DNA of 64,000 nt from NCBI GenBank assembly GCA_002118135.1, contig BDIU01000047.1:62001-126000 (forward strand), written 5' to 3'. The position numbers and the translations under genes are program-made. Under the pieces are notes generated by a model. The model saw only the letters and a list, made by a program, of their open reading frames with translations, was not told the DNA's origin and ran no database searches. Below are positions 12,201-63,910 of this stretch, piece by piece. This DNA comes from Trebouxia sp. TZW2008. Taxonomy: Eukaryota > Chlorophyta > Trebouxiophyceae > Trebouxiales > Trebouxiaceae. How positions within the stretch are numbered: the stretch's first letter is position 1; each line of letters begins with the position of its first letter.

Positions 12201-15200
12201 GCTGGCGCTTGCGCTTGGCAGAGCTGGTGACGCGGCTGCGCTGATTGTACACCACAAAGGTGTTCAGCTCACTGTGCCGCTCCACTGGCACTGCCACTTG
12301 GAAGTGCTGAGCCAAGCTGTCCACCAAGTTCTGCAAATGCACAGCATTTCAGCTGTCTGACAATGCTCAGCAAGACTGTATGCCTTGTGCAGGGAAACCT
12401 TGAGGCAAGTGAAACAACAAAAATGGCCCAGTGAACTCAGACAAGAGTATATGCAATTTGATGTGGGCACAAGGCTGCACTTTGCTTGACTTCGCCTGGA
12501 ATACCTTGGCAGCAAGTTTGCAGTGTCTCTAAGAGTGGACACAACACTGCAGCAAAGCTGACAGCCCAAAAAGCTGCTTGTGAGCCAGATGAAACAACAG
12601 GAATTGAGACTGTGTGCACCAAGTCTCCCGCATGGATGTCAGATATGAAGCATGTGGGGACCTGACCTGCATGGTGCACTCCATCCTGCCTGCAGGAACA
12701 TTGTGCTCCAGGCCAGTGGCAGCATCTGTGTAGGTAGTCTTCTTGGTGGTGTTGAGAATCATGCCAGGCAGGGCAGCGCCCCCTCCAGCCTCCACCCCTG
12801 CCCTCACAGCTAGCTCAGCAGCCTGCAATGACCACAAATGAATGCCTTTGCTAGAGCAGACAGTGCAACATGTGCATGACCGATGTTGTTGCTGCTGAGA
12901 TGATTGTGCTGCTGTAGCTGTGGCACAGACGAAGCAGCGCTTGCTGTTGCATCTGTAGCATAAGGAAAGACATGCTTTGGGTGGTTACTGAAAGGCATGC
13001 AGATGGGATATAGCGCGCATTACTTTAAGCTTCACTCATACAGCAGGCAATAGCCAAAGTAGCACAGGCTGTTTGCATCACCGCTTGCACAATGACCCTC
13101 AGAACAAATTCGTGATCTGACTTCTACAAACATTTTGCCTGTGATTTGACAGACAATTGGGCCTATTGCCTGCTTGGCTATAATTAGCTTTGGAAACAAC
13201 AGACTTCACTAGCAACGAATCGTCAGTCTGACGTGAAAGGTGTGCATACCTTGAGGCCAACATAAAGCACATTGGTGTTGGCTGGGAAGCAGCTGTACTG
13301 ACTGCCAGGCGCTGCTGGCACATCACAGATCCCCTGCTTCTCAAACTCAGTGTACTCCACATTGGTCACATTGTATGCATGCTCCACATGACCATCTGGA
13401 TGCTTCATCTTCCTCTCCAGCAGCACATTCATGCCCTCTGCTGCACCCACCACCCGGGGGCAGGAGGCAAACCCAAAGGAGCGGCTGTCGGCGTAGCCAG
13501 CTCCAGATAGGGACAGTAGTGTAGCGTCTGTACCAGCCATGGGATTGCTGCAAGGAACATCACAGAGTCTTTGGCATCAGCTGAGATGCGACTAAGTCAT
13601 TGTACTGATCAGAAACTGTATAAACAGGCACCACAGCTTGCAAGCCAACATGGTCAGGGTCAATGCTAGCTAGCTAGCGCCAGACAGAGACAGCAGTTTG
13701 GCGTCTGTGCCAGCCATCAGGTTGCTGCAAGAGCAGATAGAGCCTCAGCACAAGCTGAGCCGTGGCAGTCTCATTGCAATGAATTGTAGCTGTTTAAGCA
13801 GGGACAAGGGCTTGCAAGCAAACATGCTGAGCCTGGACATTAGCCAGCGCTAGACAAGGACAGCAATGTGACATCAGTGCCAGCCAGTGGACAGCTGCAG
13901 GAACAAACCTCAACCTCAGCACGCTGAGCGCAGAAATAGCTGGATGATTGATCTGGCTGCATGCTGTGAGGCAAGACAATACCCAAGTGTTGGTAGTAAA
14001 GGTCTGCATTGGCCACCGGCAATGCTAATTGCAACCTCTTGCCTCTTACACAGACAGCAGTCGCATTGTGCAAGAAGCAAAGAGTTGAAATTAGCATTCC
14101 AACGGCGAATGCAGACCTTTATTACCGATGCATACGAATGACAGTACAGGAAAACAGCGTACAGCATGCAAAAGGAGCGAGCTTACAGCAATCCACACAA
14201 CAGGGCCAATACAGAAGCTGTGCATCAAGGCATAGCAACGTTGCAGGCCAACATGCTGAGGCCCCATGTGTACAGTAACAGCAGATCCATCTTCACAAAG
14301 TGTACAGACACAGCATGAGAAGGGGCTGGCATGTACAAAGTCCTCTAACACTGAGCCATTGCAGTAGCAATGTGCATACCTGATCTGTCGCACAATGGCT
14401 GCCTCTCTGTCATGCTGGTACATCCAGCTGAACACGCCCTCATCCAGCATCAGCTTCCAGATGGCTCCATGTCCACCTGGTTTCAGAATGGGTGCTAGGC
14501 CTTCAGGCACCAGCCACTTGCCATCTGCTGCGCTCACCAACGGCACCAAGGGCTGGCGAAACAACCTGCCAAGCAGCCAGACACCAGTCAAGGGCTTGAT
14601 ATCAACCTGATGAACCCCTGATCAAATCAGTACCAAAAGCTTGATATGGTGCCTGTGACAAATTACTTCTGCGAGCATATAATTATCAGAATCAGGTGGA
14701 CAAGTTCGTCAAGATTGAGATTTTCCTGAGCTGTCTGCTGACATGGATGCCATGCAGTTGTCTTCATGAGCACTCACAAGCCTTTGCAAGACAAAGTCGT
14801 GTGATGACTTTGACCTCCTGCCACACACAGGGAACTGCTGAATGCAGGCAGACCTTGTATGCATTGTGCGTTCCTACCTGAAGGACTCTTTGCCACGGCC
14901 AAACCAGTCGCAGCTGCCAATGAAGTCAGTCACTCTCCTGTGGTTATCCTTGGCATCTGAGGTCATGATGGCAATGGGGGTCATCTGCTGAACACCATGC
15001 AGCTTGTAGTACAGGTACTCCCTGGCTTGCACATCCCTGATCAGGCTCTCAAGCAAGGGCCTGCCACAGTAGGGCAGCACGGCCACTGGCAAGCCTTCAC
15101 CACTTTGAGGGTCCTTCAAGCCCAGCCTGTCACCAGCACCTGTGCAGCAAATGCCTGGTTCAATGCACGCCTGCAGAAGGTCTCACAGTGGCAATGGAGG

Positions 15201-16742
15201 TATAGGGCAGCTTGCACTTTGAATAGGAACGGGAACGTGCACCAAAGTGCATCGCTGCCTTCAGTGCCGGTACATTCAAAGCATTTGTGACTGCGATAGA
15301 CATGGCTGTGAATTAAGTACACACGCAACTCATGAGTGCTGCTCGGTTTGACCACCCGCTTGCCTGCACTGCCCACTTACCTGCACTGCAACCCCGTTGG
15401 CATGTCGTAGCTTGCAGCAGTGTGGGCACCAACACCGCTCAGCACTCGAGCGACCATGAGTGCAGCATTGGCAGTGGTGGCATTGGAGCAACAGTGCAGC
15501 TCTTGCCCTGACACGCATGTATGGACAATGCAGCTGACGGTGACTGACCTCCAAGTGGGTAGATCTCTGCCATGTGAGGCAGAGCCTCAAGCCCAGCAGC
15601 TGCTGACTCGGCAGCCAGCTGGCGCCCATTTGGGCCTGCCAAGTTGGGACCCTCTGGCATGTGAAACTTGACATCTTCACAAACAGCAGTGGACTGTGAC
15701 CCAGCAGCGCTTTGCTGACCAGCCTTCTCAAGCATGATCTGCAAGCACTTGCGATGATAGCCCAGCAGACCTCCTATGCTGTTGTAGAACACCTCAACTC
15801 GCTGTAAAGTTGCTGCTAGCTGGTTGACTGCTTCTCGAAAGCCTACACCTGTGAAGGCAGAGGCACTAATGAGATCCACCCCTCTCACAATGTGCATCTG
15901 AGGTGCAACGGAATGGGCAAAAAGAAATGAGCCAGCTGAGATGGTCAAAGACAGTTGATTGCTCCTGCACATACTAGCTGGGGGCCTTGAGCCTGCCTAG
16001 CATGCATCATCAATGAATGCAAAAAAGGGATGAGGGCATACCAGCTGCGATGGGAGCTGTGAGTACATGCTCCTGACACATGGCAGGTAGGCACAGAATG
16101 GTATAGACCTCCTCAGCAGACAGAGACACCAGCTCTTCCAGCAGCAAGTCCTTGTGTCTGCAATCAGAGATTCAGATGACAGTTCATGTGTGTACTCTGT
16201 CAGGTTGTAGCAATGACAGGAGAACAGCACTAGCGCCTTTACCTGTAACTGCTGAAAAAGGCACGTATGTCTGGCTCGTTTTGCAACGCCAGCACCTGCA
16301 CGTGGAGAACCGTTGTCATCATACATGACTCTACAGCTTGTAGCAATGAATTGCTTTTATGAAAATGACTCTACAGCCTGTAGTGATGCTTCCCAACAAC
16401 AGCACAGGTGGATACCTTGTCGTGCCAACTGTTGAGACCTTCCAGTGTCTGAAGCAAGCTGATAAGTCTGTCAACTTGAGCTTGCAACTTTCCAGAATCA
16501 GATTGCAGTGTCTCAGCGGCCTTGCTTGCAGCACAGCGCAGGACATGGCTCTGCAAGCGACGTTGCGCTGTTCTGAACTTGGCAGGGCAGGCGTTTGTGA
16601 TAAACGCACGGGCTTCCGAGCGATGTACAGGCCGCAGCCGACGGCTCGCGCAGTGCGCTGCAGGTCTATTCACACTTCTGAACTGTGCTTGACTCCGTCC
16701 GCGAACAAGCTGACATGGCTGATCGATACCAACGCTGTGCAT
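9266..16742 (-). CDS. UGP3: Chloroplast UDP-glucose pyrophosphorylase UGP3 type
   Basis: Thirteen exons: 16416-16742, 16243-16295, 16042-16157, 15549-15935, 15139-15... to 14878, 14380-14565, 13250-13547, 12667-12822, 12100-12330, 10635-10936, 10117-10196, 9736-9911 and 9266-9565. They total 957 residues with every phase matching. UGP3 makes UDP-glucose from UTP and glucose-1-phosphate in the plastid, feeding sulfolipid synthesis (known for the Arabidopsis family member). An Arg/Ala-rich N-terminus of about 60 residues looks like a transit peptide. The nucleotidyltransferase core shows AEIYPLGGAGDRLGL, LPYCGRPLLE, EGLAPILKPGGHGAIWKL and GSLRITADSVMG. The C-terminal beta-helix part includes GRSEFEASNVTL and FEVPNGYKMIV, as in UGP3. 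Intron 6 carries degenerate copies of the start of exon 7 and a long hairpin. Exon 10 carries an insertion after SVMGG that may be partly misjoined. Confidence 0.9.
10470..10500 (+). repeat. G-run tract in UGP3 intron
   Basis: Three G runs of 4, 10 and 7 bases separated by 3-4 bases lie in the intron between exons 10 and 11 of UGP3. On the + strand this could form a G-quadruplex; the UGP3 transcript would carry the C-rich complement. Confidence 0.5.
11421..11468. repeat. Short 24-bp tandem repeat in UGP3 intron 9
   Basis: CCATCTGTCATGCAAGAATT and the diverged CCATCCGTCATGCAAGGTTT follow each other head to tail, with a period of about 24 bp, in the long UGP3 intron between exons 9 and 10. Confidence 0.6.
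13548..13900 (-). repeat. Degenerate tandem copies of the 5' border of UGP3 exon 7
   Basis: The true acceptor and start of exon 7 (coding SNPMAGTDATLLSLSGAG) lie at 13547. Upstream in the intron the same acceptor-plus-exon start recurs at about 13673-13727 (coding NLMAGTDAKLLSLSGAS) and 13848-13894 (coding PLAGTDVTLLSLSSAG), at spacings of about 180 and 167 bp. The flanking intron also shares blocks such as GCTTGCAAGC. Both extra copies lack a full exon and run into stops, so they are decayed duplicates or cryptic exons. Confidence 0.8.
13992..14126 (-). other. Long imperfect hairpin in UGP3 intron 6
   Basis: Positions 13992-14052 and 14067-14126 are inverted copies, with 49 of 60 aligned positions identical, one gap and a 14-nt loop. 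Seven of the eleven mismatches become G-U wobbles if the minus strand (UGP3 sense) is transcribed, giving 56 of 60 paired positions. The foldback could be a small-RNA precursor, a MITE-like element or a structured intron segment. Confidence 0.75.
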
Positions 16743-17219
16743 ATTTGACGTCGTGGGCTTTCGCAGGTCAACAGCAACAACAGCAGCAACAACATCGACA
16801 GCAACAATCCTCGCTATGACGACAGGGGTGCACGCCCGCGTTATGGCTTCTGGTGAGGTTGACTTGCGCTTGCCCCACTGTCAGCCTGACCATAGTGCTG
16901 CTGCTGTTGTTGCAGTAACGTCAAGGCCTGGCAGGTGCGGAGCAAGCTGCAAATCACCACAGCTCAAGCTGCCACCCTGTGCTTGTTGACGGCAACGCTG
17001 ACGAGAGATGCCACACGCTCCAGCACAGATTCTAGGCAACAAATGCCTGGCTCTGCAGCCCGCGCCTAAACAGGCAAACTTCCGTAGTGCCTTCCCGCGG
17101 CGCGTTCCAGATTACTGATCATAGAAGCAAAGCGCCTGCATTGGCGACATTTCCTAGCGCAGTAGAGTTGCGCGTCGAGATCCCTTTGCCCGAAAGTCGG
17201 GGCATTCAGATCATTCAGA
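16743..17219. promoter_or_regulatory. Divergent intergenic region UGP3 / LisH-WD40 gene
   Basis: About 480 bp between outward-facing start codons. An Asn/Ser-rich open stretch on the + strand ending near 16857 is noted but not supported as a gene. No clear promoter element is visible. Confidence 0.4.
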
Positions 17220-19628
17220 ATGTCAGACATGATGTCGGATCCAGATGAATATGCTGCAGCTATTGTGCAGCAGTATATGCATGAGCATGACATGCAATCA
17301 GGTAAACTGATTGAACAGTGGCGCGCTTTTGACAAATGGCTGATCGTCGTCACACGAACAATGTTGCACAAATTACAGTGTCTGCAGCCAACATCTTACA
17401 GTCTTGGTTGCATAAACAGCGCTACAGGCTCTGGAAAAGCAAAGAGGCCGTAAGTTTGTGCCTGACTTAATGCCAAGAGGATCGATCCTGCTTGAGGTAC
17501 GTTTATGTGCATGCTGTGTCCACAAGCCATGCACAAATCATGCAAATGTCCTGTTCTGCTGATCTGCTGGAAGAGTCCACAGGTCGCCAGCAGCTGACAT
17601 TTTAAGTTCAACATTGACATGCAGATGGTATATAAACAGCTAGAAGAGCAAGCAGCTGTCAATGATTCAGGACAAGATCAACTTGCAGCAGAAGAAGAGG
17701 CTCTCCTTCATGGTGGCAACCAGGACTACCCACAGCAGCTGACTCATTCTGTAGACAATTTGCACGAAAGCAGTGTCATCTCTGTTTGTTGCTGGCCTGG
17801 CAACAACACAAAAGCAATCACAGGATCAGGCAAGTCTTCATGATGCCTCAAGCCCCTGATACAGCATGCATTGTAGTTCATGTACCTGTCATTGGGACTT
17901 GCTGCGTTGCCAATCAGCAGCCAATCGTCCCCAAAAGTACTGTCAAATGAAAAGGCAACAATCGCCGCAGTTGAAGCGTGATTGTGTGCTTGCAGGCAAT
18001 GGCCTCATTCAACTGATAGACTATGCAAGAGATGAATTTGAGTGGCAGTGCCGAACCAATGCAGGCGGCATTCTCAGTCTGGCATTGCAACCTGCTGAAC
18101 AGTACGCCTTCCAGATCATGAGCATTTGAGCATCCAAATGTGCATATGGTCATACTCATGAGAAACACACGTAGTTGATTGCCCAAAATCAAGGGCAGAA
18201 CTTTGGCCACAATATTTGCTCTGATTTAGCAGACCTGCATCACAAATTCAGCTGCACTTGTCCTGCAAGCGACCATTGAGCTCCAGGCCTTGCAATACAT
18301 GCCACATGCATGCATTCAGATCAAAGTGCTTGTCAGGTCAGTGTGTTGAACGGAATGCATGTAGCAACGCTCATCATCTGCAGAACAACATATGCAGATT
18401 GTAGAGCTGTGGATATCCACTTTGCAGCAACTGCAAGTTGCTCAGTATGCAAACATGTGTCCCTTGCATGCAGGTCACAAAGCATGCTCCTGTCAGCTGG
18501 AGCCATGGATGGTTCTGTTGTGCTACTTGATGCACACTCTGGGCAGCTTTTGTTTTGTCATAAGGCACATGCCAAGTATTGTGTCAGAGTGCGATGGAAT
18601 CCAGATTGCCGCCAGTTTGTCAGCTGCTCCTGGGATTGCACAATGTCAGTTTTCCAGCTGCAAAAGGGGGCAGATGAACCCAGCTTCAGCTTGCAGAAGT
18701 CTGAAACTTATCTCTCACAAGTACAAGATGTGGAATTCATTCCTGCTGCTGCACCGTCTGAACAGCTGGTTGTCATAGCATTGAAGAATACAAACTACTT
18801 GCGCTTATATGATCCAACCAAACTCAAGGTAAGGACACTTAATTGTGCTACATTGTCTTGTAATCGTCTGCTGATTTTCATTCGCTGCATCCTGAAATTG
18901 ATCACAAATGATCAGAACCCCAATGTGATGAGGCTGTGCAGCCTGCAGTCACAATATTGATGGTGGGGTCTGAATGCAGGAGCACTCAAAAGTCAACATG
19001 AACGTCATGGGGGATGATCATGTCTCTTTCGCAGCAAGTCATCTGGCCATATCGCCATGTCGGCGTTACTTACTAGTTTCAACAGATGGGGCGCGCATCA
19101 TCATGTTCAAGATACAAGGTACGTGGGATTATGATAGCATGCGTTCATTTTTTATCTTTTCGGGGTACGGGGAGAAGCTCTTCGTATGGGTCTGCAGCGC
19201 ATTGTGTACCTTCTGTGACTAACACGGTGAAGTGTGTACAGATTGGTCACAGACCAGAAATTTCTATGGATTGCATGTGGAAGAGAAGTTTCATCAGCCA
19301 TGTACAGCTTGGCACAGCAGCGGCTTTTACATATTTGCAGCTGCAGCAGCAGGCAGGGTTTATGTCTTTCATGTTGGCACATCTAAGGTAACATGTAACA
19401 TGACACCTGCATGATGTTGGGTTGATTGCTTTTGTGTGACAAGAAGTCCAACAATGAGCATAACTCTTGGGAAGATGCAGCTGTGTTCTCTAGACGGAAT
19501 GTTTTGTTTTGCAGGTGGAGTCCCAAATCAAGGCCCATCTGAAGAATGTACGCGCCTTGGACTGTAACCCAAAGACAAATGCGCTGGTTACATGCAGCTT
19601 CGACAAAACAATCAAAGTGTTCTCGTGA
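17220..19628 (+). CDS. LisH-like N-terminus plus WD40-repeat protein
   Basis: Eight exons: 17220-17301, 17420-17496, 17625-17829, 17996-18101, 18474-18828, 18980-19118, 19242-19387 and 19515-19628, for 407 residues with consistent phases. The first 50 residues, including DEYAAAIVQQYMHEHDMQSA, look like a LisH dimerisation motif. The rest shows WD40-type strands: SSVISVCCWP, GAMDGSVVLLDAHSGQ, CVRVRWNPDCRQFVSCSWDCT, HLAISPCRRYLLVSTDG and a final CSFDKTIKVF. Such proteins are scaffolds. I do not recognise a specific orthologue, so partner and pathway are unknown. The intron after exon 3 uses a GC donor (G|GCAAGT at 17830); taking it is the only choice that keeps the frame into GNGLIQL. Confidence 0.8.
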
Positions 19629-25536: not shown

Positions 25537-25790
25537 TTTGCCCGCCCTGAGGCGGACAGGTTTTTACAACAACTGTGTGCCACTGCTCAAGAAGCCACAA
25601 CTGCCAGCATTGCAAGCTCCATGCCTGCTGCAAGCTTCCGGGTTCAAGGGCGAGTTTGTTAGAAGTTGCACAAAGCGAATTTTCGATACCCTAGACGAAT
25701 TGGAATCAGTGCTCTGCTCTGCTCAGAACTGCCAGCCGGTTTGGTGAAGGTGGCCAATTTCCGGGAGTCTGCGGCCACGACTGCTTGACA
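25537..25790. promoter_or_regulatory. Short divergent promoter region CNOT4 / centrin
   Basis: Only about 255 bp separate the two start codons, so a shared bidirectional promoter is likely. No motif can be named with confidence. Confidence 0.45.
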
Positions 25791-28023: not shown

Positions 28024-28249
28024 GTCTCTCGATTGAAGCACAAGCCTGTTCAATCCGGCTTTCTTGGCGCACGGTTCACTCTAAGAGCGAGGATAACGAG
28101 ATGACTGATCCTGCTGCAAGGCAAACTTTGCTCTAGGGCCAATGCGCAGACCCTAGCTTCATTTTTGCAAAATTGGAGCTTGGATCCCTGCCAGTGCCCC
28201 GGCAGGTACAGGCGCTGTGTATCGACATTAGAATTGCTGCCTTGGCACC
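28024..28249. promoter_or_regulatory. Short divergent promoter region petM / Y14
   Basis: About 225 bp between start codons, the tightest head-to-head pair in the window. It likely contains a bidirectional promoter; a plastid photosynthesis gene and an mRNA-surveillance gene would share it. Confidence 0.45.
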
Positions 28250-37100: not shown

Positions 37101-38691
37101 GTCAAGCATCAAGCTGACACCTCTCTGGCTTGGGGACACAAGCATGCAAATGCCCCATAGCATTGGTGACACCTTTAGAGCGCATGAGAGCTGGCATGAG
37201 CATCATCAACATACGTGCAACTGTCAGTTTGTTGTGCAATTATCTCAGCAAAGGTGTTGTGTTGCAGACGGAGCGTGCTTTCACGCCGCCTTTGGTAGCA
37301 ATCATGGGTAATGGTACTGAGCCAAATCCTCGCAACATCTCCAGCCCCAAAATGACCTCTTTCAACGCTCAGTCTTGGGCAGCGGTGACAGAAGAGATGT
37401 CGGCCCATCCAATTGGTGGCTTGAGATTTTCATCTTTCAGGTAGATGCTGACTCACCCCTGCTGTGCATGCCTTGCACAGGGCAAGCATTGCATGCTGCT
37501 GCAGTACAATTAGTCAGCCCAGACATGTGTTGAGATGCAGTGTGAATGCTGTCCTACTGAATAATCAGGACTGCAAAAGAGACAGGCTTGTTGCTGCTGT
37601 GAAGTCATGCATACAGACAATATGTGCTGACATGAACTCATGCATAGAGACAATGTGTGGGAGGGTGGTAATCATGCTACTGTTCCCCCCTTGGCGAATG
37701 CATCAGATCATCCTAAGCACTGAGCTCTGACAGCTAGCCTTTCTGTCATCTGCAGGCCATTTGTATACAAGAATCCGTTGCCAGTCATGTCCCCTGTAAT
37801 TGTGTCACCCTTCTACAACATTCGGCTTCAACAGCCACACCTATTCTTTCCTGCAGGCCGTTTGTATACAAGAATCAGCTGCATGTTTCCTATGCCATGG
37901 AGATCTTTGACAAGGCGCTCACTGTCAACAACCAGACGCGCAGCGATGAGCATAAGATGCGCTTCCAAGGCAGCGGCTTTGCCAGAATCGACCTAGAAAC
38001 CCTGGAGCTGCACAGCCTCATCAACTTTGACCAGCCACTAATTCCCAGGAGGGAATTCCCATGCTGTGACAAGAATTGGGGAGTAATTGAACATGGGCAG
38101 GAGCTATACATCATTTACACATTGCTACCATGTTTGACGATCTTCAAGCTAGATCAGAGTCAAGCTACAGGGGCTTCCATGGTGTATGCATCCTGTCTCA
38201 AAGACAATGTCTCTGCTATGCTGTCAGAGGCTGTCAAGCTTGAGATGCGTGATGTGAGAATCAGTGGACACCCTATTTGGTGGTCACAGTATCCTCAGAC
38301 CCTACTGGTGCTAGTACACCATAACTGGAGGAAGCACGGGGGGTCAATGCATTGGGCAGTACAGTTGCAATTCAGCCCAGAGCGCAACAGATTCAGCGTT
38401 GCTGCAGTCTCCAAGGAACCAGTACTGAATCATGAGCACTACTACCTGTACAATGCGGCTGTTGAGAATGTGATAGCAGTGGGCAGCTACCACTTGTCTG
38501 GTGGGCATTTGCGCATCCTGTATGGTGATGGCGACAAATACTCAGCCTTTGCAGATGTGGACACAGCAACCATCAGCTGGCAGCATTTGAATGAGTCATC
38601 GGCTGCTGAGTGGACAGATGGCTTGGGTGTTGCGCTGGGTGACAGAGTCAACAGCATTACCTACAAAGAATATGAAAGTCTTGTGTGGTAG
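34168..38691 (+). CDS. Secreted alpha/beta-hydrolase fused to five-bladed beta-propeller glycosidase-like domain
   Basis: Nine exons: 34168-34581, 34681-34750, 34841-34942, 35309-35418, 35741-35833, 36049-36400, 36749-36846, 37268-37440 and 37857-38691, for 748 residues with every phase matching. Residues 1-25 are a signal peptide or anchor (VICSALILLVAPLSAT). Residues about 60-330 look like an alpha/beta-hydrolase: FFPGWTMHKEVW, SLVVDFAGRGES, nucleophile elbow FGLSLSASSA (G-x-S-x-S rather than G-x-S-x-G), and a late His-rich segment HDFGGND. Residues about 385-748 resemble GH43/GH32/GH130-like propellers: NPAAAELQPFGWLL, a CCDKNWGVIEHGQELYIIYT blade motif, and HYYLYNAAVENVIAVGSYH. The pairing suggests carbohydrate deacylation plus glycan cleavage or binding in the secretory path or cell wall. 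Substrate is unknown. The domain calls are by pattern, not search. Confidence 0.7.
35988..36017. repeat. Pentanucleotide microsatellite (CATGA)n
   Basis: Repeated CATGA units with two diverged CACGA units lie in the intron before the sixth exon of the hydrolase-propeller gene. Confidence 0.75.
37756..37856 (+). repeat. Duplicate of the 5' border of the last hydrolase-propeller exon
   Basis: CTGCAGGCCATTTGTATACA at about 37751 recurs as CTGCAGGCCGTTTGTATACA at 37851, 101 bp downstream. The second is the acceptor whose exon continues through PFVYKNQLHVSYAMEI to the stop. The upstream copy also splices in frame for more than 40 codons, so an alternative exon is possible. Confidence 0.8.
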
Positions 38692-38821
38692 TGAACATAT
38701 CTTAGTCAACAGCATTAGATACAAAGAACATGAAAGTTTTGTGTGGTAGCAAACATATCTGAGGCAGCAGCATTAGATACAAAGAACATGAAAGTCTTGT
38801 GTGGTAGAGCTATCTGTCTGA
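38648..38821 (+). repeat. 58-bp tandem triplicate spanning the hydrolase-propeller stop codon
   Basis: A 58-bp unit beginning GTCAACAGCATTA occurs at about 38647, 38705 and 38763. The first copy encodes the last residues VNSITYKEYESLVW and the stop. The next two follow in the 3' untranslated region, each with a few substitutions. Confidence 0.85.
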
Positions 38822-39989
38822 GTGAACAGCATGCATGCTGTCACTAAATGGTTGCTTGCTTGCTGATATGATGGCGGGTTTTGCAAACAAGCTGGGTCTC
38901 AATGCCACACCTTGCATGCAGCAATGTTGGCATTGATCTTCTGCTTGCTGCAGCCTGCCAGAAGTAAAAAAATGTTTATTGCAGCTTACATTTTCTGCCT
39001 CGTTTGACTGCCCTAGGGCCTTCAGCTGCTCATGGACAATACTAGAACTGTTAACTCAAGAATCAATCTGACTTGCACCTTGTACAGAAGTGTGCCACAC
39101 ACAACATTCAACGCTGTTTTGACCATAAAGAGCAGAAGTATCGAATTGAGCTTTGATAGGATCAGGGGTCTTTGAAGTTGGCTTGGACATCATTTCTTTA
39201 ATGCTTGAACTGTGATACAGTCACACGTTGCTCAGATACCTTGAGCTTACTTTTAACAGCTGGTGATTTATCATGTGCCATGTGGGAAGTAATCGACTTT
39301 CAATTTTGTACTACACGACTGTCGTTGATAATGTCATGAAGTCAGATCCGAACATGTAATGAAGTGTTGTCTCAGCTCAGGACTGCCAGCACAGTTTGCA
39401 ATGCATCAGAAATGTTCTTTGCGCAATGCGCAGGCGGTCTACCACGCCCCGTTTAGGGCCTTATCAGCAGCAGCCAGGTGCTGAAATTGTTGCATGTATC
39501 ACTCCCAAAACAAAGTCGCATGATGGTGTGTCACCGCAACATTCAAGTCAGTGGTTCGCTGCAAGGTGTAAGCTTGATCGCCGCGCGCTGCATTCTCAAT
39601 GGTACAGAGATAGTACAGAGAGGGGTGCAATGTAGTCTTTGTCAAGCAAACCTTGACAGCTGCTTGCCTCCATGCACATGTAACTCAAGGCTGCTGTAAT
39701 TCAACATTACACGTCATGCCAGGCTTGACACTCAAGCACAGGGTCATGCGGCTGTCTTATGTAGCTAGCATGCATATGCGACAAAGCAAGCTTTTGTACA
39801 TCAAGCAATGGTAAGCTGTAAACTTTACATTCTGTGCACAATTGTGCAGCATATGTACCAGCTTAGGTGCGAGGGGTGCCATAGCTACTCTCATGCCCAA
39901 GTGGCCTTTGAGTCAAGCAGTAGTACACCAACACCATGAGCCTTACTCATGCTCAATTGGGTGCAGCAAACAGCAATGGCTGCATCTGC
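38822..39989. other. Convergent intergenic region without supported genes
   Basis: About 1.2 kb between the hydrolase-propeller stop and the sulfotransferase stop. Small open frames on the + strand around 39396-39700 lack recognisable features. Nothing else is seen. Confidence 0.4.
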
Positions 39990-42983
39990 TTATTGCTCAA
40001 TGTCAGCCCACTGCAAGTCACGGTTCAGAAGATCATACAGAGCATTGTTGCTGCGCCTGAAATATGCCTTCAGATACTCTCTCACGCTTGGATGCATTGT
40101 CTTCCCGTGGTACTCGGTCTGCACAGAACAAATTGAAATGTAGCCAACTGACGCTAGAAAGGAAACAGATGAGTGGCACAAAACAGCAAATGTGAGGTAC
40201 ATTTGCAAGTGCAAGCTTGTAAACTGTAGGACTGTATACTTGTTGACCCACACAGATTCTGCAGTGCAATTTTCACAAGCTTACACTTGAAAAGCTGATA
40301 CTTTGTACTATAGCTACAGTTGACTGAGACATAGAGACAATGATTCAAATGACTGAGATATATGGCATGGTATCTTTGACGCATTGGCTGAGACATTGAT
40401 TGAGACATGGCTGTACAGAAATGAGCATACCTTCATGCCTGGTGGCAATGCAATGTGCTTGTACAGGTCTGGGTCAGCTCCGATAAAGCTGCAAACCTCC
40501 CTCATGACGCTTTCTGTATTCTTGGTGAACTCATTGAAGTCTATGAACATCATACTGCAGACAAGCCACTGGGTTGCTCAAGACTGGTTGCTTGATGACT
40601 GTATATACCTAGCTCGGCCTTTGAGCCTAATTAGCATGCGTCTTGATAGATAGATAGATGAGGGATAATTAGGCAAGCCAGCACTTTGTTCATGTCACGA
40701 GCCAGTCAGCAGCACAAGGCACATATGCTGATTCACAGCAAGAAGCTGCTCCAAAGGCAGACACAGAGGCAGAACGATGCTCCGCTGGTCCTGCTGCCCA
40801 TGTCTGAGCAGACAAATCATGCACATGAACATGATCACCGCATTGCAGACAAGCTAGCACTAGCTTCCTTTCCCCAGCCAGTTATGAACACAAGGCACAG
40901 CATTGCACTGCTCTGCTAGTCCCTCTGCCCATGCCTGAGCAGCTCAATGATGAAGGGCAAACATGCAAACACTGTATTGCAAGAAGACAAGAAAGTCTAC
41001 GCCGTAAGGTGTCATGACTGGAGCCTCTGTTTACAGAGGCAGCCCGAGGGGACTGCAGCTGCTAGAATAGGTGCAGACAAAGGCATCTTGCTGCTTACTC
41101 ATCGGGTGCAAATTCTTGCAGGAAAGGGCGGATGCGGTCTGCATAGCAGCCAGACATCAGCAGGGAATGCAGGCGGGTATAAAAGAGCTGCGGCATATTG
41201 TGGGGAAGGGGGTCCATTGGCTGCAGATCCTTGAGCTCCTTCCACAGCTCTATTTCATCTTCTGCCTCCTGTTCATTCATAAGCATTGTCATTGCATGAA
41301 GTACAGTCAGCCAACTCTTGGCTGCTTGCTGCATATATGGACCTGTTTGACACTATGCAACAACAGGGCTAGCTACTGGAGCAACATCATGCAGCACCAT
41401 AGCTGAGGTCAAGTGTTGCATCAGCAAAGCAGTAGCGACAGTGTTTGTTGATGTCACAAGCTTGAGCATAACTGCAAAGAATCAGCACCTGAAAGCGAGA
41501 ATCATTGGGCGTGATGGGGTCTGCTAAGCTCCATGTTAAAAGTACCCCCATGTTCACCAACTGCATGCACAATGGTGAATCAACAGCAGCAAAAAGTCAG
41601 AACGGCACAAATTGTAGAGCAAGCATTTTGACATTGGCAAGTAGATAACATGATCACAGTCAAGCAGCCTTACCATTGTCTCTGCGCTGAACATCACTGG
41701 CACTGGATCCCGCAACTGCATACGACACTCAAGAATCAGTGTAGTGATGTGAAGCACACGCTATTGCAGCAAGGCGTGAGCAAAGAGGTTGGGGCAGGAA
41801 CAGTGAAGAGCCAGCTTTGTAATCGTCAGCATGCAATACATCATGACAGCACAGGTGCATGCATCACGCATGTTCTTGCGAAGCAGTTGCACGTGTGCGA
41901 GACAGCATACAACAGAGTCACACTCAACTCAACCATGACAGGCTAGTGCAGCATGTTTGCAAGTTCGACTGCACTTGTGTTGCACATGTTTGATCGTATG
42001 CCAAACCACCAATGTGGAAATTGCATCTTACCATGAAGATGAGCTTAGCATTGGGAGTGATAGCCTTGATGCGCCTGGCAGTATATGGCAGGCAAGCTGT
42101 GACAGGACAGGCATCAAAGCACATCCACTGCATGCACACAAAGCTTCAGACTGCCACACAGTAGACTTAATTCAAGCAGCAACATGCTCTTTGTAGCTCA
42201 GCTACAAACAACAGGCTACATGCACAACGTTGTGTGCGTAAAATTTTTTGGTGCTGCTTTGATGAATTGTACACGCGTGCATGTAACAAGATAGAAACCT
42301 TTGTGACACCCCTGACATATTCTGCCCACCATCTGCACAGGATTGTTGGAAAGAAGCTTCTGTACAGTGTTGCAGAAGAGGCATGATTTGGGCCTAACAC
42401 GCCATTAAAGTAGTGAGATTCCTTGCTCAGAGCTTCGTGCCATGGCAAGCCATCTAGACCAGAAATGGCTGGATGCTGCCTCAGCTGATTAGCCAGTGAA
42501 GTGGTTCCAGCTTTCTACAGGCATTTTGATAATGAATAATTGCTTGCAACAAGGCTTGGCCTTGCACACAGTCAGGGCAAAAGAAACTTACAGGAAAGCC
42601 CACAACGTAAAAGTCAGGAAGGTGTGGCCTCATTGGCAGCGTCAGAAGGCGTCTCAGCACATTCAGCGTGTAGGTGTTTTCAAAGCCAAGGCGGAGGCAT
42701 TGTCCTCTGAGCCAGGGCTGGGCTTTGAAAATCGCAGGTATAAATGGGCAGCACCTACATGCAAGCAAACGCAGCTACTTGATCAGAGTGACTGGTGTGC
42801 CCAAACATCGCTGCTGGACGATACCTACCAATACAGTTTTCTGACTACGACCAGGCGAGGCAGATACAAAGTTGTCAACAAGATCGCGAGCATATACGCC
42901 ACGAGAAGGTATGCTAGGACGAATAGCACGGTGATCGGTGACAGCAAGATGGTAAGGGCAGTAAAGCACAGGTGTCGTTGCAT
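39990..42983 (-). CDS. Type II membrane-anchored sulfotransferase
   Basis: This enzyme would transfer sulfate from PAPS to a glycan in the Golgi. Exon 1 (42829-42983) begins MQRHLCFTALTILL and carries a long hydrophobic signal anchor. Exon 2 (42592-42754) leads to DFYVVGFP; exon 3 (42310-42514) opens with KAGTTSLANQL. Joined, they make the 5'-phosphosulfate-binding loop GFPKAGTTSL. Later exons: 42032-42131 (ITPNAKLIFM), about 41680-41725 (LRDPVPVMFSAETM, the 3'-phosphate-binding region), about 41490-41560 (LVNMGVLLTWSLADPIT), about 41100-41270 (GCYADRIRPFLQEF), about 40440-40560 (MMFIDFNEFTKNTES) and 39990-40120 (ending LNRDLQWADIEQ). The pattern fits the heparan/GalNAc sulfotransferase superfamily. 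The substrate is unknown; algal wall or matrix polysaccharide is a guess. An intron holds diverged duplicate blocks near 40720-41000. Confidence 0.82.
40645..40662. repeat. GATA microsatellite
   Basis: A short (GATA)n run of about four units lies in a sulfotransferase intron. Confidence 0.7.
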
Positions 42984-44721: not shown

Positions 44722-44801
44722 CTATGTACGGTTTCTCCTGTTGCTGCTCGCCTAGGTGGGAGCTGATGGGTCTAGATCAAGTAAGTGACGCGATCTCAGA
44801 T

Positions 44802-53809: not shown

Positions 53810-56800
53810 TCAAAACCCAATGCGCTTGCCAGCTGGAGCTTGCACTGTGTCATGCAATGCTATAATCTCTTTGCAGTACAACTGTGAGTTTCTGGCTGGA
53901 TCAATCGCTTGCCGGCGGGATTCTGGGATGACCTTGCTCTTGTGTGCACAGCCAGCTGACTCAAAGTCCCGCTGCATGAACCAATCAGCTGTCCTGGTTG
54001 TCAACAACACCAGCCGCTGAATGCCACGCATTCTGGCACTCTGCTCAACATAGTCCAACAGGCTATCGCCACGGCCTGTGCCTCTGTGACTTGGATGGAC
54101 TGTGAAAGCAGCCAGTTCACCGCAACGCACGCCATCTGCTGCTTGCCCCAAGTCTTGCAGGAGCACACAAGCCAGAACCTGCAGCACACAATCAGCCTTT
54201 CAATGTTTGCTGCGGTTACGACTAAACGGGACTAGCAGGCCATGACCACAGCCTGTGCCTCTATGACTTGGATGAACTGTGAAGGCAGCCAGTTCATCAC
54301 AGCGCAGGAGCACACAAGCCAGAACCTGCGCCAGACAATCAGGCTTTCAATCTTTGCTGCTATTATCACTGAATGGGACCAGCGGGCTATCGCCACGGCC
54401 TGTGCCTCTATGACTGGGGTGAGCAGTGAAGGCAGCCAGTTCACGACAGAGCACGCCATCTGCTGCTTGCCCTAAGTCTTGCAGAAGCGCGCAAGCCAGA
54501 ACCTGCGCCATACAATCAGGCATTACGTGTTTTGCTGCTTTTACCACAGCGCATGCCATCTGCTGCTTGCCCTAAGTCTTGCAGAAGCATGCAAGCCAGC
54601 ACCTGTGCCATAAACTCAGGCATTCAGTACTGCTTGTACCAGTAAAAAGGACTGCAACATAATGGTGTCAATATGCTGTCAGCAGCACATGGTGGCGTCA
54701 TGAGGTGAGCATGCAGAGCTGTTGCATAGTCTACAAAGGGCTTTTGGGGGACAGCATCCGGTAGATATGCCTTGCAGAGGTACAAATGCTATGACAGATC
54801 ATGCAGGACCAGCGTCAATCACACTGAGCACCTATGCTAGCATGTGATTGACCAATGATCTTTGCATCACCATCTTGCAAGGTCAATTTGAAACGCGGTA
54901 GCAATGCTGTAGAGACAGACATTTTAGGCACTGCATACGGGCAGTAAGAATATACTGTGCAAGGCTGCAAACACTGCAGAAGGGCACAGGAATTTGAATG
55001 GCATTTTGCAAGAGTGAAGACCTCAGATTCTCTTTCAAGCACAGTGAAGCTGTGCAAGTCCCGCAGCAAACTCTCCCTGGAACGTGCTTTGGTGACTCCT
55101 GCCTGGGCTAGAGGCTTCAACAAGCCCTCAATGGCGTCCAAGTCCACCTGCTGAGCTGGCCTGATGCCCTCATAGAAGTCTGTGGAAATCATGGTCCCGA
55201 CGCCATCCCTACAATATAGTCGCTGCAAAATGAAGCACATGCAGATGTACACAGCTCAATTGGTTCTGCTGAGCTGGCCTGATGCCCTCAGAAAAGTTGA
55301 TGGAACTCATTGTGTCAATGCCATCTCTTCAGAACAATCATGCCTGATGAAGCATGTAAACGGCTCAACTAATTGTATCAGGGCAAGAGAGTGGATGCAC
55401 ATTTTGTGCAGATCAAAGTGTTGACTGTATGCAGCAGACTACGTGAGGCGAGGATAATGCAGGCCACCCTGTCATTGCAGCTGCATGAGCAAAGCAGCGT
55501 TTGCGTTTGTGTGTGGCAGGCTGCCTGAGGCTCACTTGCAGACAGCTGACAATGCTGTACGAGGGCCTGCAGAGACCTGATACAGCCTGCCCCACATTGA
55601 TATTGCCAAACAAGCCAAGCATACCAGGCAGGCATAGCCAAGGCTGCCCTCACCTTGAGTACAGCTCCAGCAGCAAGCCACCATTCTGGCGTGCATCCAC
55701 CAAATGAGCCCTTTTGACTCCACTCTTGCACGCCACAACAGCTGTCAGAAGGGCATTGGGAAAGTTGAGAGCCTGCCAGCAGTCCATGTCCAGCTCAACT
55801 TCTGCCAAAGTCTGATGCTTGACACCATTCATTGATCCGCTGCCATTGCCATTCCCCAGCAAAGCCTGCCTGGGTGACGCAACGCCGTTGCCGTTGCTGC
55901 TGGCATTAGTCGCCCAACGAGTTGGCATGTCTGATGGTCCTGTTGAGATCCCATCTAAGCTCGGGCAGGCTTCATCCAAACTGCAGACTAGGTCATCTGG
56001 GTCTATTGCTGACAGGCGCTCATGGATCAGCGCCTCAGCGTCGTTCAGGGATAGCCATTTGGGCATGTTGAGAGACTTAACGTCGTCCATTGTGACGCAC
56101 ATGATCTTGTCAGCTTTCAGCTCAATGGCTGCGTGTGTGGCCACATCAAACGTGTTGCAGTTCAGCACCTCCCCAGATGCACTGTAGCCCAAGTTAGATA
56201 GCAGTACCAAGTGCCCAAGGTCTAATTGCTGGTGGATAGCTTGATGCTGTACAAAGCGAACGCTGCCGGTGCTCCCAAAGTCTATGCCATCGACAACGCC
56301 TCTCCTTTTGCTGGTGACATAGTTGCCGCTGACCACACGCATTGCTGGAGCAAAGTGGAACTCATCCGAAGTGTTTGAGGTGCGGTTGTGCCGTCTGATG
56401 ACTGATACAGCTGGAGCCTGTATCAAGCACACAAGCATTGTGAACCATGTGCATCGCTTATACAGCAATTTATCCTTTATGACGACTGCAATGGTCACCA
56501 AGAATAACCATTGCAGTCAGAATGCAGTGATTGGTCCCCAATTGCCTTCTGCTTACATTATGAACGTCTGTAGAAAGAGAAAATACCGTTGCATACTTCT
56601 TTTGGCTCTCACAATACTGTATTTGCTGAATGTTGAGCCAATTCTTGTGGCTAGAAGTCAGTATGAAAGCAGGTCAAACTAGTGTCATAAGCAGTACATA
56701 TGACAAGCCTAAGCAAGCGCATTATGCGCAAAACCTGTTCACAAGTCCAAAGCAATTGTTGCAGCCTTACAGGCAAAGCCATAATGTGCGTGACAAGCCT

Positions 56801-57777
56801 CAGCCGGTGCATCATGTGCAAAGCTTATTCTCATAAGTTTGGGGCAACTATTGCAACCTTACTGGCAAAGCCCTGCCGTATCTGATGAGGCGCACAATCT
56901 GTTCTGCTATGCGATTCACAACATGTGCTCAAAAGGCTTATTCATGGAGCTGATTACCTTTGCAAGTTACAGCACATCCTGCAAAGGCCGAAAGGTAGAG
57001 CTGATCACCTTCGAGAGTTGTGCCTCGACAAGCATTCTTGCAGTGCCTGCTGCTTCCATGGCTGCCAGCATTGCATCTTCATCTGTCACTCGGTACCCGC
57101 CAACCCGCTTTGGGTCCAAACCTCGCATGCTGAGGTAGTTGTCGATTTGAGTCTTGACCCCAAGTACAACCACAAGACGACATCCCAGATCTGCGTGCCA
57201 ATTCCAGCTCATTTTGTTCAGAAGGCTTGGACTTGCAGTGCAGCAACCATGCACTGTTTGGTACAGGAAGAGTTGGTGCAGTCGAACTTGGACCTACCGT
57301 GCAAGATCTGGATATCCTGCAGCAATGTTTGCAGAAGGTGCCTGTGCAGTATGACCTGCATACCAGCACAGGTCATCATCCGCGTCGGCAGCATCGATTC
57401 AAGCACAAAGGATGCTTGGTGTCGTGTCCGTGCCGAGCTCGCCACCATTGTCTCTTTGCAAATACCTCGCCGGGAATCACAATGACAAAGGTTCGTCCAC
57501 GATGGCCTTCAATGTATGGCGAAGCCTGCCGGAAAAATTGAACAAACTTGCTGAAATCCTCTCCCCTTAGCTGTTCTTCAGGTGCGGAGTGCACAGGCTC
57601 CGGCAAGGGCGCCCATTGATATGGGGCTGGTTGCCAACGATTTGCGCGAAGTTTGCCATCATATTGCGAGCGTTTGCTGCGTTTATAACGCAATTTGCTG
57701 CTAGCAAGGTTTGGGAGCCTCTGCAAGCCGAAAATGCAGCGGTGATCAAGTGGACCGCCAAGGACTTGCATATTCAT
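53810..57777 (-). CDS. NAGS: N-acetylglutamate synthase, chloroplast type (AAK-GNAT)
   Basis: NAGS makes N-acetylglutamate from acetyl-CoA and glutamate, the first step of plastid arginine synthesis. Six exons: 57446-57777, 57298-57341, 57009-57190, 55654-56417, 55022-55208 and 53810-54178, for 625 residues, phases matching. The N-terminal 60 residues are basic and can be a transit peptide. The amino-acid-kinase-like domain shows HRGRTFVIVIPGE, KTQIDNYLSMRGLD, KRRGVVDGIDFGSTG and SNLGYSASGEVLNCNTFDVA. The GNAT domain shows ELAAFTVHPSHRGTGRGDSLLDYVE (acetyl-CoA loop HRGTGRG) and LLTTRTADWF. A Ser/Asn/Gly-rich insertion (about residues 345-385) separates parts of the kinase-like domain. Introns 3, 4 and 5 each contain degenerate copies of adjoining exon borders. 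Confidence 0.93.
54179..54625 (-). repeat. Three extra degenerate copies of the NAGS exon 6 start
   Basis: The real acceptor and exon start (GTTCTGGCTTGTGTGCTCCT on the minus strand) sit at 54178. Related acceptor-plus-exon starts recur with borders at about 54325, 54502 and 54602, at spacings of 147, 177 and 100 bp. Each is followed by parts of the exon (LACVLLQDLGQAADGV, GELAAFTVHPSHRGTGRGDS) with substitutions and gaps. Confidence 0.85.
55209..55345 (-). repeat. Degenerate copy of the NAGS exon 5 start
   Basis: The exon 5 start (border at 55208) recurs about 117 bp upstream in the intron (border at about 55326). It shares the block CTGCTGAGCTGGCCTGATGC on the + strand and the rest with substitutions. 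Confidence 0.8.
56484..56541. repeat. Short inverted repeat and dispersed motif in NAGS intron 3
   Basis: GACTGCAATGGT (56484-56495) and ACCATTGCAGTC (56507-56518) are perfect inverted 12-mers around an 11-nt loop. The following TTGCAGTCAGAATGCAGTGA is shared, with one mismatch in the core, with the eIF4B intron near 6340-6366. Both places also have a GGTCCCCAA close by. This may be the remnant of a small dispersed element. Confidence 0.6.
56700..56872. repeat. About 87-bp diverged tandem repeat in NAGS intron 3
   Basis: A unit starting TGACAAGCCTAAGC near 56701 recurs as TGACAAGCCTCAGC near 56790. Both run through a Cys-His-like ATGCGCAAA/ATGTGCAAA block to CCTTACAGGCAAAGCC and CCTTACTGGCAAAGCC. 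It is noncoding on the model used here. Confidence 0.7.
56946..57009 (-). repeat. Degenerate copy of the NAGS exon 3 donor border
   Basis: The exon 3 end and donor (minus strand AACTCTCGAAG|GTGATCAGCTC at 57009) recurs about 52 bp into the intron as AACTTGCAAAG|GTAATCAGCTC, border at about 56957. Confidence 0.75.
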
Positions 57778-58173
57778 GGTGCATTTCACTGAACGTGGAA
57801 GTCAAAGTACTCCTGTATGCTTGGCCACCACCTCACGGCTGTATGCATTGCGCGAGTGAAAATCGTGCCCCTTGCTGCTGCCTTTAAACGAAAAGTTCGC
57901 AGCCAACGACCGTATTAAGCCCACATGGGCTCCATGTGATGCTGCATGCTCTATAGCATGCTGCCTGCGCTCTCCCCAGTGCCAAAAGCTTTCATGCGCG
58001 ACTCACGTACTTCTGCGCGTAGCAGCTGTTTGTGACATGCAGCTGCTGTTGATGTCTCAGAGCGGCACCCTATTGTCTCAAGAAAGGATGCGCTGATCCT
58101 ATATGCATGGCAGGTGATCACTGATCGTTCTTGCAATCTCGCGTGCATATCTGTTCTCATGTTCTGACTATTC
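57778..58173. promoter_or_regulatory. Divergent intergenic region NAGS / APC10
   Basis: About 395 bp between start codons. A shared promoter is likely; no named element is visible. Confidence 0.4.
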
Positions 58174-59113: not shown

Positions 59114-59879
59114 AGCGCAAAAACTTGATTGTGCTGTGCCAATGTTCACGTGGTGAGAGGTAGATGCTGCAGTTGTGCTGGCAAGTGACTGCAGTTACTT
59201 CACTGTACTGCATGATGTAGCTGTGCACCTCACGTTGTGCGTCAAGTGCTGTGTGAGTATCAGGGCAGCATCTCAGGATGCAAGCAGCGCTCTGACTACG
59301 TTTCTCAACACCAGCTGCTGCATGCACACAACTATTCCTGCACATAGGTGGTCATGCTTGAGAGCTGTGCAAGTGCTTCACTGACAAGGTGATGCGCTGC
59401 ACTTCAATTGCAAACTGACTATTGCTTCAGCAGCAGCTGCTGGAAAAGAAGCTGATTGACAGGCACAAGGCGTCCGTGAGGTGATGGGGCAAAACATTGC
59501 CTCAGTCATTATCCTTATCAAACAGGATCTGCAGAGCTTGGCACCTCGGGCAGCAAGGACTCTTTTGCAATGACTATTCTATCTGAGTACTGCCAATGAC
59601 ATGCAAGAAGGATTGAACATGTAACAAAAACAATGTCCAAAAGCTGCACAAATTGTCATGACCAACTCAGTTTTGGGCAGACAGATCTATTGCAAGAACT
59701 TCAATGTGCACGCACATGTGCAGGCATGTATAAGCTGTATAAACTTTTCTCTTCTAGCTGCACATGCCAGAAAGCTGTATGGAAAAAGCCGCCAGGCAGC
59801 TGAGAGCATCTTATCAAAATCTTAATGGTAGTGTACAAAGCACTGCAAGCAGCCATGACTGGTACTGAATAGCTCATAA
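59114..59879. other. Convergent intergenic region APC10 / EngA
   Basis: About 770 bp without supported coding sequence between the two stop codons. Confidence 0.4.
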
Positions 59880-62150: not shown

Positions 62151-63211
62151 TTGGACTTTGCGGTCTAAGGCTGGGGCTCACTGGTTCAAGATGAAACAAG
62201 TGTGGCTGCGGGTACTGACCAAGCCTGCAATGAACTGCTGAAATCATCACAATGGTGTCCAGGGTGCAGGGACAGGCAAGGTATAAAGTGGCAAACAATG
62301 CATGTTTCATGCCTGTGAAATCTTAGTATGTTGGTTGTGCCATTCAAAGAGATGGTGCATCCAGAAAGCGCTACCGTGCTGTGTTGCGTACAGCAATTGG
62401 AGTCTGCGAAGACTTATATGACTACAACAAGTCGATTTACAGGTGCATGTGGCTCAGGTATCTTTGCCCCACATCAGCAAGCCTTTTCAAATGTGACGAA
62501 TTGAGTTGCTGTGCTATTCATGTCGGAAAGTGTAGTGCAATCATGGTGTGACACTCAGACTTCCGAATTACAAAGACCAAAGCTATCATACTGTAATCCA
62601 GTCCACACCATGATCTGCACAACACCTTACAAGATGAACAGCACAGCAACTCAAACTGCTTACACACTTGGGTACTGACACAAACGCAAAGCTGCACATA
62701 GCAAAGGAATGCGGCAGCATTTGAAAAGAGGAGTGGCAGAAAGCCATACCACACATGATGATTATCTCATTTCATCACTGTTGATATCTATGCCCAACTT
62801 CAGCACATGCTAACATGAGAATGTTGGGCAGAGGTAGCAGAAGCAACAACATGCAACAGCTATTGACAGAGCATAATTCGCACCACCGCGTGGCACTGTT
62901 TCATGGCAACCTTGATCGATACAAAGAAACTAGAGCTGCGTCTGATGGCATGGATACTCAGCTCACATATCATTGAAGGTGCAAGTCAGTTGTGGCTTGT
63001 GGCTTGCATCAAACATGCAGGTAGTGCATAGGGGCAACATCTACTCAGACCTGCTAAAGTTTGGGCATGGCAAAAACGCTCTGCCAAGAATATCATTGGA
63101 GGGCACTCGACAGCATAATGAGCCATTATGCAGGAATTGGTATGTGCAATGCCGGTCACTCATGAAAGTACTTTACCTGAGCCAGCTAAGTTGCAAAGTT
63201 GACAACTAGTG
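62151..63211. other. Intergenic region EngA / LYR gene
   Basis: About 1.06 kb between the EngA start and the LYR gene stop. Open frames are short and featureless; nothing is supported. Confidence 0.4.
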
Positions 63212-63910
63212 TCAGCCGTCTATCTTGTCTGCAGGACTGCTGGTGACGCCTTCCTGTACACATCAAGAAGCCTCTGAGGTCAAATGCACTAACAGTCATC
63301 AGTGCACGTTGTGAATTATGCTCTACCTGGAGCATGCACTGTGCGTCCATAGACGTGTAGCTGCTGACATAACAAAGAATCAAGAGTCATCAGGGCACAT
63401 GCACTACCTTAGCCATGCGCTGTGCCTCCATGAACATGTAATTGCTGAGACCTCTGATCGCTGCTTCTTTTTGCTCTGCTATCTGCATGCAAACAGTCTG
63501 TTAGAACCTGCGCAGAAAGTCACAGGTACTTGTCTTGAGCAAACTTGTAATTTTTCTCACCTTCGTTGGATCGCTTTCGGAAGCGTTGCGCTGGAATTGC
63601 TGCTGCACCTGCTTCTTGATGATGCTTGCGTTGCCGCCCTACACACGTCCACGACCTGTTTACCCTTATAAGCTGTATGTCACTCGACTCACAGCGGCAG
63701 CTTGTGCGCAGCGATGCATTGCTGACAGTGAAAACACCCACGCAATCACCGACCTTTGTACCGACGTAGTCAGCAAGACGTAAGCAGTCTCGATAGAGCT
63801 GCAGGAAAGCAAGAGGATGCACGTCAGATCTGGTACCGTGCGCTGCTAAGGCGGCGGCGTCACTGGCATCAAGGCCTCACCTTGGTGACTGTGAATGCGC
63901 TTTTGTCCAT
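63212..63910 (-). CDS. Small LYR-motif (complex 1 LYR-like) protein
   Basis: LYRM proteins are small mitochondrial helpers that bind acy-carrier protein and aid Fe-S or respiratory complex assembly. Five tiny exons, all phase 0: 63881-63910, 63754-63798, 63561-63638, 63408-63482 and 63212-63253, for 89 residues. The LYR motif opens exon 2 (LYRDCLRLADYVGTK). A helical basic part follows (ASIIKKQVQQQFQRN), then QKEAAIRGLSNYMFMEAQRM. The length (about 90) suits LYRM proteins. The precise subtype is not clear. The 3' border of exon 4 has a degenerate copy in the next intron (border near 63327). Confidence 0.82.
63320..63372 (-). repeat. Degenerate copy of LYR gene exon 4 donor border
   Basis: Plus-strand GCACTACCTTAGCCATGCGC at 63401 recurs as GCTCTACCTGGAGCATGCAC at about 63320, with the following 30 bases also similar. 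The splice donor itself is included in the copy, 81 bp away. Confidence 0.75.

What the first reader, a model, noticed from the sequence alone, without database searches (positions are those of the whole stretch)
13548..63372. Recurrent tandem duplication of exon borders across several unrelated genes
At six exon borders in four genes (UGP3 exon 7; NAGS exons 3, 5 and 6; the hydrolase-propeller last exon; LYR exon 4) the splice site plus 30-60 nt of adjoining exon is repeated, in diverged form, within the neighbouring intron. Copies are on the same strand, 50-180 bp apart, and include the splice site. Both acceptor and donor borders are affected. This looks like a genome-wide process: local tandem duplication that creates intron sequence or shifts borders, in line with proposed models in which a duplicated AGGT-bearing segment gives rise to new or longer introns. 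I know of no description of this pattern at this density in a green alga.
Basis: partly seen in the sequence, partly recalled or inferred. Interest (0 to 1): 0.75.

Follow-up and report, generated by a model that had tools for sequence, protein, structure and literature searches.

The report
Short tandem duplications scattered through genes
In this green-alga genome (probably the lichen alga Trebouxia) short stretches, mostly 60 to 200 bases long, have been copied side by side at many places, and in the sample examined the copies occur at exon borders about as often as inside introns or exons, so the repeated borders are likely by-products of a general duplication process rather than of one that makes introns.

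Summary
Five of the six claimed border copies are real: same-strand, diverged copies scoring above all 500 resampled controls. The sixth (NAGS exon 3 donor) is not significant, P = 0.06. The pattern is not shown to be border-specific. In 254 kb of this genome (the window plus 19 stretches; 12 contigs), 60-nt probes with a copy within 400 bp make up 11.0% at predicted splice borders, 9.8% in introns, 9.5% in exons and 4.5% in intergenic DNA; border/intron is 1.11 (interval 0.90-1.39). What stands out is a dense set of local tandem duplications covering 14.5% of the sample, with units of 60-200 bp in 80 of 90 not mostly coding arrays; planted duplications are recovered equally well up to 600 bp, so the drop above 200 bp is not a detection limit. 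The signature of intron gain from an AGGT-bearing duplication is absent in 350 introns. Exon-bearing copies diverge more slowly (46 of 57 pairs), which makes border copies conspicuous. The likely but untested source is fill-in and joining of staggered breaks. Effects on splicing are untested.

The parts
13494..13929 (-). Three diverged tandem copies (177 and 170 bp apart) spanning the acceptor of a UGP3-like exon; the copy contiguous with the exon body starts the exon at 13547, the two outer copies lie in the intron 13548-14379
54055..54653 (-). Four copies spanning the acceptor of the last NAGS exon (exon start 54178), 100-177 bp apart; one outer copy (54380-54502) keeps an open frame
   Evidence: relatives' NAGS proteins hold this exon head once
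55148..55354 (-). Two copies, 118 bp apart, spanning the acceptor of NAGS exon 5 (exon start 55208, placed by relatives' proteins)
37730..37882 (+).
63291..63448 (-). Two copies, lag about 81 bp, spanning the donor of LYR exon 63408-63482
56932..57019 (-). Claimed copy of the NAGS exon 3 donor (exon end 57009): not significant
   Evidence: score 15, control maximum 20, P = 0.06
38645..38832 (+). 58 bp unit in about 2.8 copies that starts inside the last coding exon and runs past the predicted stop codon (exon end 38691): the same kind of array at a border that is not a splice site
8326..8519 (.). Near-perfect 92 bp tandem duplication (99%), the youngest in the window, outside predicted coding exons
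40671..40981 (.). Local repeat lying wholly within a predicted intron (40555-41098), period 131
56701..56872 (.). Local repeat lying wholly within a predicted intron (56418-57008), period 90
2812..3052 (.). Local repeat lying wholly within a predicted intron (2632-3129), period 99

Best explanation
The copies at exon borders belong to a dense set of local head-to-tail duplications, mostly with units of 60-200 bp, that touch borders, introns and exons about equally in the 254 kb examined and likely arise when two nearby nicks on opposite strands make a staggered break whose overhangs are filled in and rejoined. Shown: the copies, their same-strand arrangement, their unit sizes with a drop above 200 bp that is not a detection limit, no significant border preference in the exhaustive test, and no AGGT intron-gain signature. 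Inferred: a duplication crossing one splice border can survive because the copy contiguous with the exon body keeps the reading frame, while the outer copy becomes intron and decays. Inferred: border copies stand out because one of the two exon copies is held by selection, so the pair diverges more slowly. Inferred and untested: the repair mechanism, and a role of the units in lengthening introns.
For: Direct local repeats: 143 pairs real vs 0 in one Markov-resampled copy. Probe rates border 11.0%, intron 9.8%, exon 9.5%. Unit size 60-200 bp in 80 of 90 arrays, with planted duplications recovered 19-20 of 20 for units of 60-600 bp. Exonic part of a pair more similar than its intronic part in 46 of 57 pairs, 81.5% vs 76.9% of aligned columns overall (several pairs can come from one array). 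81 of 84 arrays have no relative elsewhere in the 254 kb. One array crosses a predicted stop codon (38645-38832) and some lie wholly in introns. Staggered-break fill-in as a source of small tandem duplications is described in PMC8355091 (abstract, introduction and passages seen). Ku-family matches exist in the assembly.
Against: Sampled probe tests and the geometric test showed some border excess. Intergenic DNA is poorer in copies (4.5% vs 9.8%; intron/intergenic 2.17, interval 1.07-10.2), which an undirected process does not predict. Borders are gene-finder predictions. No junction data: most copies are too diverged to read breakpoints, and the one near-perfect case (8326) shows a 3-base overlap, which slippage would also allow. 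Whether the Ku matches belong to the alga was not checked, and the Stn1 search was uninformative.
Confidence: 0.6

Rival explanations
1. Border-targeted duplication: something about splice borders (chromatin, R-loops, splicing-coupled breakage) makes duplicated segments start in an exon and end in the intron, giving longer or new introns.
For: 30 of 46 exon-masked intron arrays cross a border vs 17.7 expected from present lengths; border rates above intron rates in sampled tests.
Against: Exhaustive test: border/intron 1.11 (0.90-1.39), border/exon 1.15 (0.71-1.81). The geometric excess disappears if introns were half as long when duplicated (28.6 expected). One array crosses a predicted stop codon instead.
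Confidence: 0.15
2. Replication-based duplication: Okazaki-fragment flaps or template slippage duplicate segments up to one fragment long, which would set the limit near 200 bp.
For: Units fall off sharply above 200 bp; the near-perfect 92 bp duplication has a matched stretch 3 bases longer than its lag. The length match with Okazaki fragments is recalled, not from a call.
Against: No direct test; strand and junction patterns could not be read in diverged copies.
Confidence: 0.2
3. New introns born from tandem duplication of an AGGT-bearing exon segment.
For: Same-strand copies at splice sites; border-crossing duplication made a new intron in potato RdRp (PMC4974935, abstract and introduction seen).
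Against: No similarity between donor and acceptor flanks at a lag equal to intron length: 17.87 vs 17.70 of 71 over 350 introns; highest value 27, within the range of control maxima 25-31 printed for the top rows.
Confidence: 0.03
4. A dispersed mobile element or introner family that inserts at borders.
For: Three of 84 arrays have a match elsewhere in the sample; a dispersed repeat exists in the window.
Against: 81 of 84 arrays have none; genome searches with the NAGS array, the UGP3-like unit and an L007 unit returned only their own locus (that search skips very common words).
Confidence: 0.02

Closest known systems
Small tandem duplications from break repair (PMC8355091; natural insertions in rice, Vaughn and Bennetzen 2014, seen here only as summarised in PMC7407515)
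   Same: Local head-to-tail copies; said there to be a common class of short insertion in human and plant genomes
   Different: Here the copies are old and diverged, cover 14.5% of the sample and are mostly 60-200 bp; the rice insertions are summarised as 10-1000 bp and the human ones as under 100 bp
Border-crossing tandem duplication in potato RdRp (PMC4974935, abstract and introduction seen)
   Same: The duplicated segment crosses an intron-exon boundary and copies the 3' splice site with exon head
   Different: There a new spliced intron was shown; here no new intron is shown and multi-copy decayed arrays are common
AGGT model of intron gain (Rogers 1989, as described in PMC4974935)
   Same: Tandem duplication near splice signals
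   Different: Its flank signature is absent in 350 introns
Introners (PMC9860276, passages seen)
   Same: A source of intron sequence discussed for algae
   Different: Introners are dispersed families copied into many genes; 81 of 84 arrays here have no relative elsewhere in the sample

Membership tests
Small local tandem duplications | Adjacent same-strand copies at one locus | tested here: met
   143 direct pairs within 600 bp vs 0 in a resampled copy; arrays with matched length exceeding the lag, i.e. head-to-tail
Small local tandem duplications | Unit in the tens to few hundreds of bases | tested here: met
   80 of 90 arrays 60-200 bp
Break-repair origin (fill-in and end joining) | Junctions with little homology; dependence on Ku and fill-in enzymes | not testable with these tools
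   Copies too diverged; Ku-family matches in the assembly, Stn1 search uninformative
Border-specific duplication | Copies more frequent at splice borders than in introns or exons | tested here: not met
   Ratios 1.11 (0.90-1.39) and 1.15 (0.71-1.81); sampled tests leaned the other way
AGGT intron gain | Donor flank and acceptor flank are copies at a lag equal to intron length | tested here: not met
   17.87 vs 17.70 of 71 over 350 introns
Intron creation by border-crossing duplication (potato RdRp type) | A new spliced intron between the copies | not testable with these tools
   No RNA; relatives' NAGS proteins hold the exon head once
Introners | Similar intron copies in many unrelated genes | tested here: not met
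   3 of 84 arrays have a relative elsewhere in 254 kb; own-locus hits only

The most novel reading that the evidence does not exclude
This alga has a size-gated duplicator of 60-200 bp segments, matched to a nucleosome or an Okazaki fragment, that is the main engine of intron growth and keeps supplying genes with decaying spare splice borders, some of them used as alternative borders.
Probability: 0.25. Interest if true: 0.65.

Novelty: new member of a known kind. Interest (0 to 1): 0.42.

Why it matters
If the size class holds across the genome, exon-anchored copies would serve as slowly decaying fossils that make a long-running rate of small tandem duplication measurable, and would tie a repair or replication length scale to intron length. 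Introns with detected repeats (100 of 351) have a median of 539 bp against 260 bp for the rest, with 325.5 bp outside the repeats; longer introns also have more room for repeats, so this is correlation only. It also shows how a striking border pattern can follow when the duplicated unit is about as long as half an intron.

Tried and rejected
BLAST self-comparison missed the 92 bp near-perfect duplication at 8326 (seen by TRF, absent from the listings), so unit sizes were taken from an ungapped lag scan. The first gene-finder training drifted into about 1,850 introns with a median exon of 44 nt; it was rewritten with length terms. Its models merge some neighbouring genes and added decoy exons in NAGS (54380-54502, 55536-55566), so border counts rest on predictions, and pseudo-exons inside arrays are counted as borders. 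Random probe sampling gave unstable intron rates (5.1%, 8.6%) and was replaced by the exhaustive scan. The geometric expectation was not taken as decisive because it hinges on unknown ancestral intron lengths. Nucleosome phasing was not tested. The eight paper searches cover open-licence full texts only; their listings showed me no paper describing this pattern in a green alga, but I opened only four papers. Vaughn and Bennetzen's paper is not held. How unusual the density is among algae could not be tested: no other algal genome was available to me.

Full report
What was asked.

Setting. The window is part of a 68.5 Mb, 527-contig assembly. Its NAGS protein is 83% identical to one from Trebouxia sp. 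C0006, so the genome is probably from Trebouxia or a close relative. Gene names: NAGS is supported by a Pfam GNAT match and a below-cut-off amino-acid-kinase match and by homologues; LYR by Pfam; the UGP3-like gene only weakly (UDPGP E 0.006, below the curated cut-off; UDP-sugar pyrophosphorylase structures, best E 9.8e-10).

Observation. Five of the six borders carry a copy that beats all 500 resampled controls, and one does not. The UGP3-like acceptor sits in three copies 177 and 170 bp apart, and the NAGS last-exon acceptor in four. Three Trebouxia NAGS proteins contain the duplicated exon head once (P0001-P0003) and place the NAGS exon 5 acceptor at exon start 55208.

Genome sample. I took 19 stretches of 10 kb from 11 other contigs, 254 kb with the window, and trained a simple gene finder on it. 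Its last training round had 36 genes, 386 exons and 350 introns with median 328 bp, acceptor TTGCAG and donor CAG/GTAAG; the final decoding gives 702 borders. All borders below are its predictions, and neighbouring genes are sometimes merged.

How much. Local direct repeats within 600 bp number 143 pairs in real sequence and 0 in one resampled copy. The ungapped lag scan gives 497 segments in 112 clusters after removal of overlaps; a first version of the scanner gave 1945 unmerged segments in real and 0 in resampled sequence. Together the repeats cover 36,929 of 254,000 bases: 23,895 of 143,684 intron, 11,433 of 78,549 exon and 1,601 of 31,767 intergenic bases. The exon figure includes true coding repeats, such as those in long open frames of the C4 stretch. 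At least one cluster occurs in each of the 12 contigs. The window is a sparse part.

Unit size. Of 112 clusters, 90 have exon content below 0.8 and lag 40 or more; 80 of these have units of 60-200 bp, 2 of 40-59, 2 of 201-300 and 6 of 301-1000, with median 135. Planted duplications with 22% substitutions and 1% indels are recovered 19-20 times of 20 for units of 60 to 600 bp, but 11 of 20 at 45 and 3 of 20 at 30, so the upper drop is real and the lower one is not measurable.

Border test. With every twelfth position as the centre of a 60-nt probe, copies within 400 bp at score 24 or more occur at 194 of 1,771 border, 999 of 10,146 intron, 436 of 4,588 exon and 89 of 1,960 intergenic positions. 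Block-bootstrap ratios are border/intron 1.11 (0.90-1.39) and border/exon 1.15 (0.71-1.81). Randomly sampled versions had given donors 10.2%, acceptors 13.0%, exon interior 10.1% and intron interior 5.1%, and border 11.6%, intron 8.6%, exon 8.2% with border/intron 1.36 (1.04-1.81) and border/exon 1.42 (1.13-1.91). I weigh the exhaustive count most; a modest excess is not excluded.

Geometry and ascertainment. In introns scanned with exons masked, 30 of 46 arrays extend over a border when unmasked; uniform placement in present introns minus the extra copies predicts 17.7 (z 4.3). If introns were three quarters as long at the time, 21.8 are expected; at half, 28.6; at 0.35, 34.4. In pairs with both an exon-intron and an intron-intron part the exonic part is the more similar in 46 of 57; over all aligned columns 81.5% vs 76.9% match. 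Pairs longer than 700 bp were left out, and several pairs can come from one array. This is expected if one copy is under selection, and it keeps such pairs visible longer.

Intron gain. The AGGT model predicts that the donor flank is a copy of the acceptor flank at a lag equal to the intron length. Across 350 introns mean identity is 17.87 of 71 against 17.70 at other lags; the highest value is 27, against control maxima of 25-31 in the top rows. Recent gains of this type are not detectable in the sample. The potato RdRp case (PMC4974935; abstract and introduction seen) shows that a border-crossing duplication can make an intron; whether any does here needs RNA.

Not a mobile family. Of 84 arrays with exon content below 0.6 and lag 50 or more, 3 have a relative elsewhere in the 254 kb. 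Genome searches with the NAGS array, the UGP3-like unit and an L007 unit return only their own locus.

Mechanism. The simplest reading is undirected local tandem duplication filtered by selection. Exon-internal events would be removed; exonic copies thin with distance from the border (10.9, 8.9, 4.8, 5.0, 4.0% in 30-nt steps from 30 nt) but rise again beyond 210 nt (8.6-14.7%), where few, long exons with coding repeats dominate (the reason for the rise is my inference). Intronic and border-crossing events would persist and decay. A fitting source is fill-in of overhangs at staggered breaks followed by end joining (PMC8355091; abstract, introduction and passages seen). Ku-family matches exist in the assembly (not checked to be the alga's own); the Stn1 search was uninformative. 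Replication-flap duplication is an untested rival for the limit near 200 bp. The lower rate in intergenic DNA (4.5% vs 9.8%; ratio interval 1.07-10.2) is not explained.

Verdict. The narrow unit size and the high coverage are the features worth following.

Noticed in passing
13992-14126, 62501-62654, 11590-11719, 3906-3984, 40202-40293, 7464-7588, 28136-28200: Diverged self-complementary stretches (palindromes of about 65-155 bp). In the 254 kb, 17 local inverted pairs at score 25 or more against 1 in a resampled copy. The one at 13992 hits only itself in the genome.
   Followed up: partly
6253-6429, 7639-7806, 56450-56600: A dispersed repeat present in both orientations within the window, unlike the private tandem arrays.
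   Followed up: no
L007 4601-5637 and 6604-8643: Long arrays with 192 and 180 bp units, up to about 11 units, with neighbouring units up to about 95% identical: recent expansion on top of old duplication.
   Followed up: partly
54380-54502: An outer NAGS copy keeps an open frame and was taken by the gene finder as an extra in-frame exon; a candidate alternative exon if RNA shows it.
   Followed up: no
C4 stretch (L004, L020-L022), joined coordinates 14294-15545, 17183-18566, 29816-30725: Coding tandem repeats with periods of 171-189 bp (57-63 codons) or fractions of these in long open frames, in the same size range as the noncoding units.
   Followed up: no
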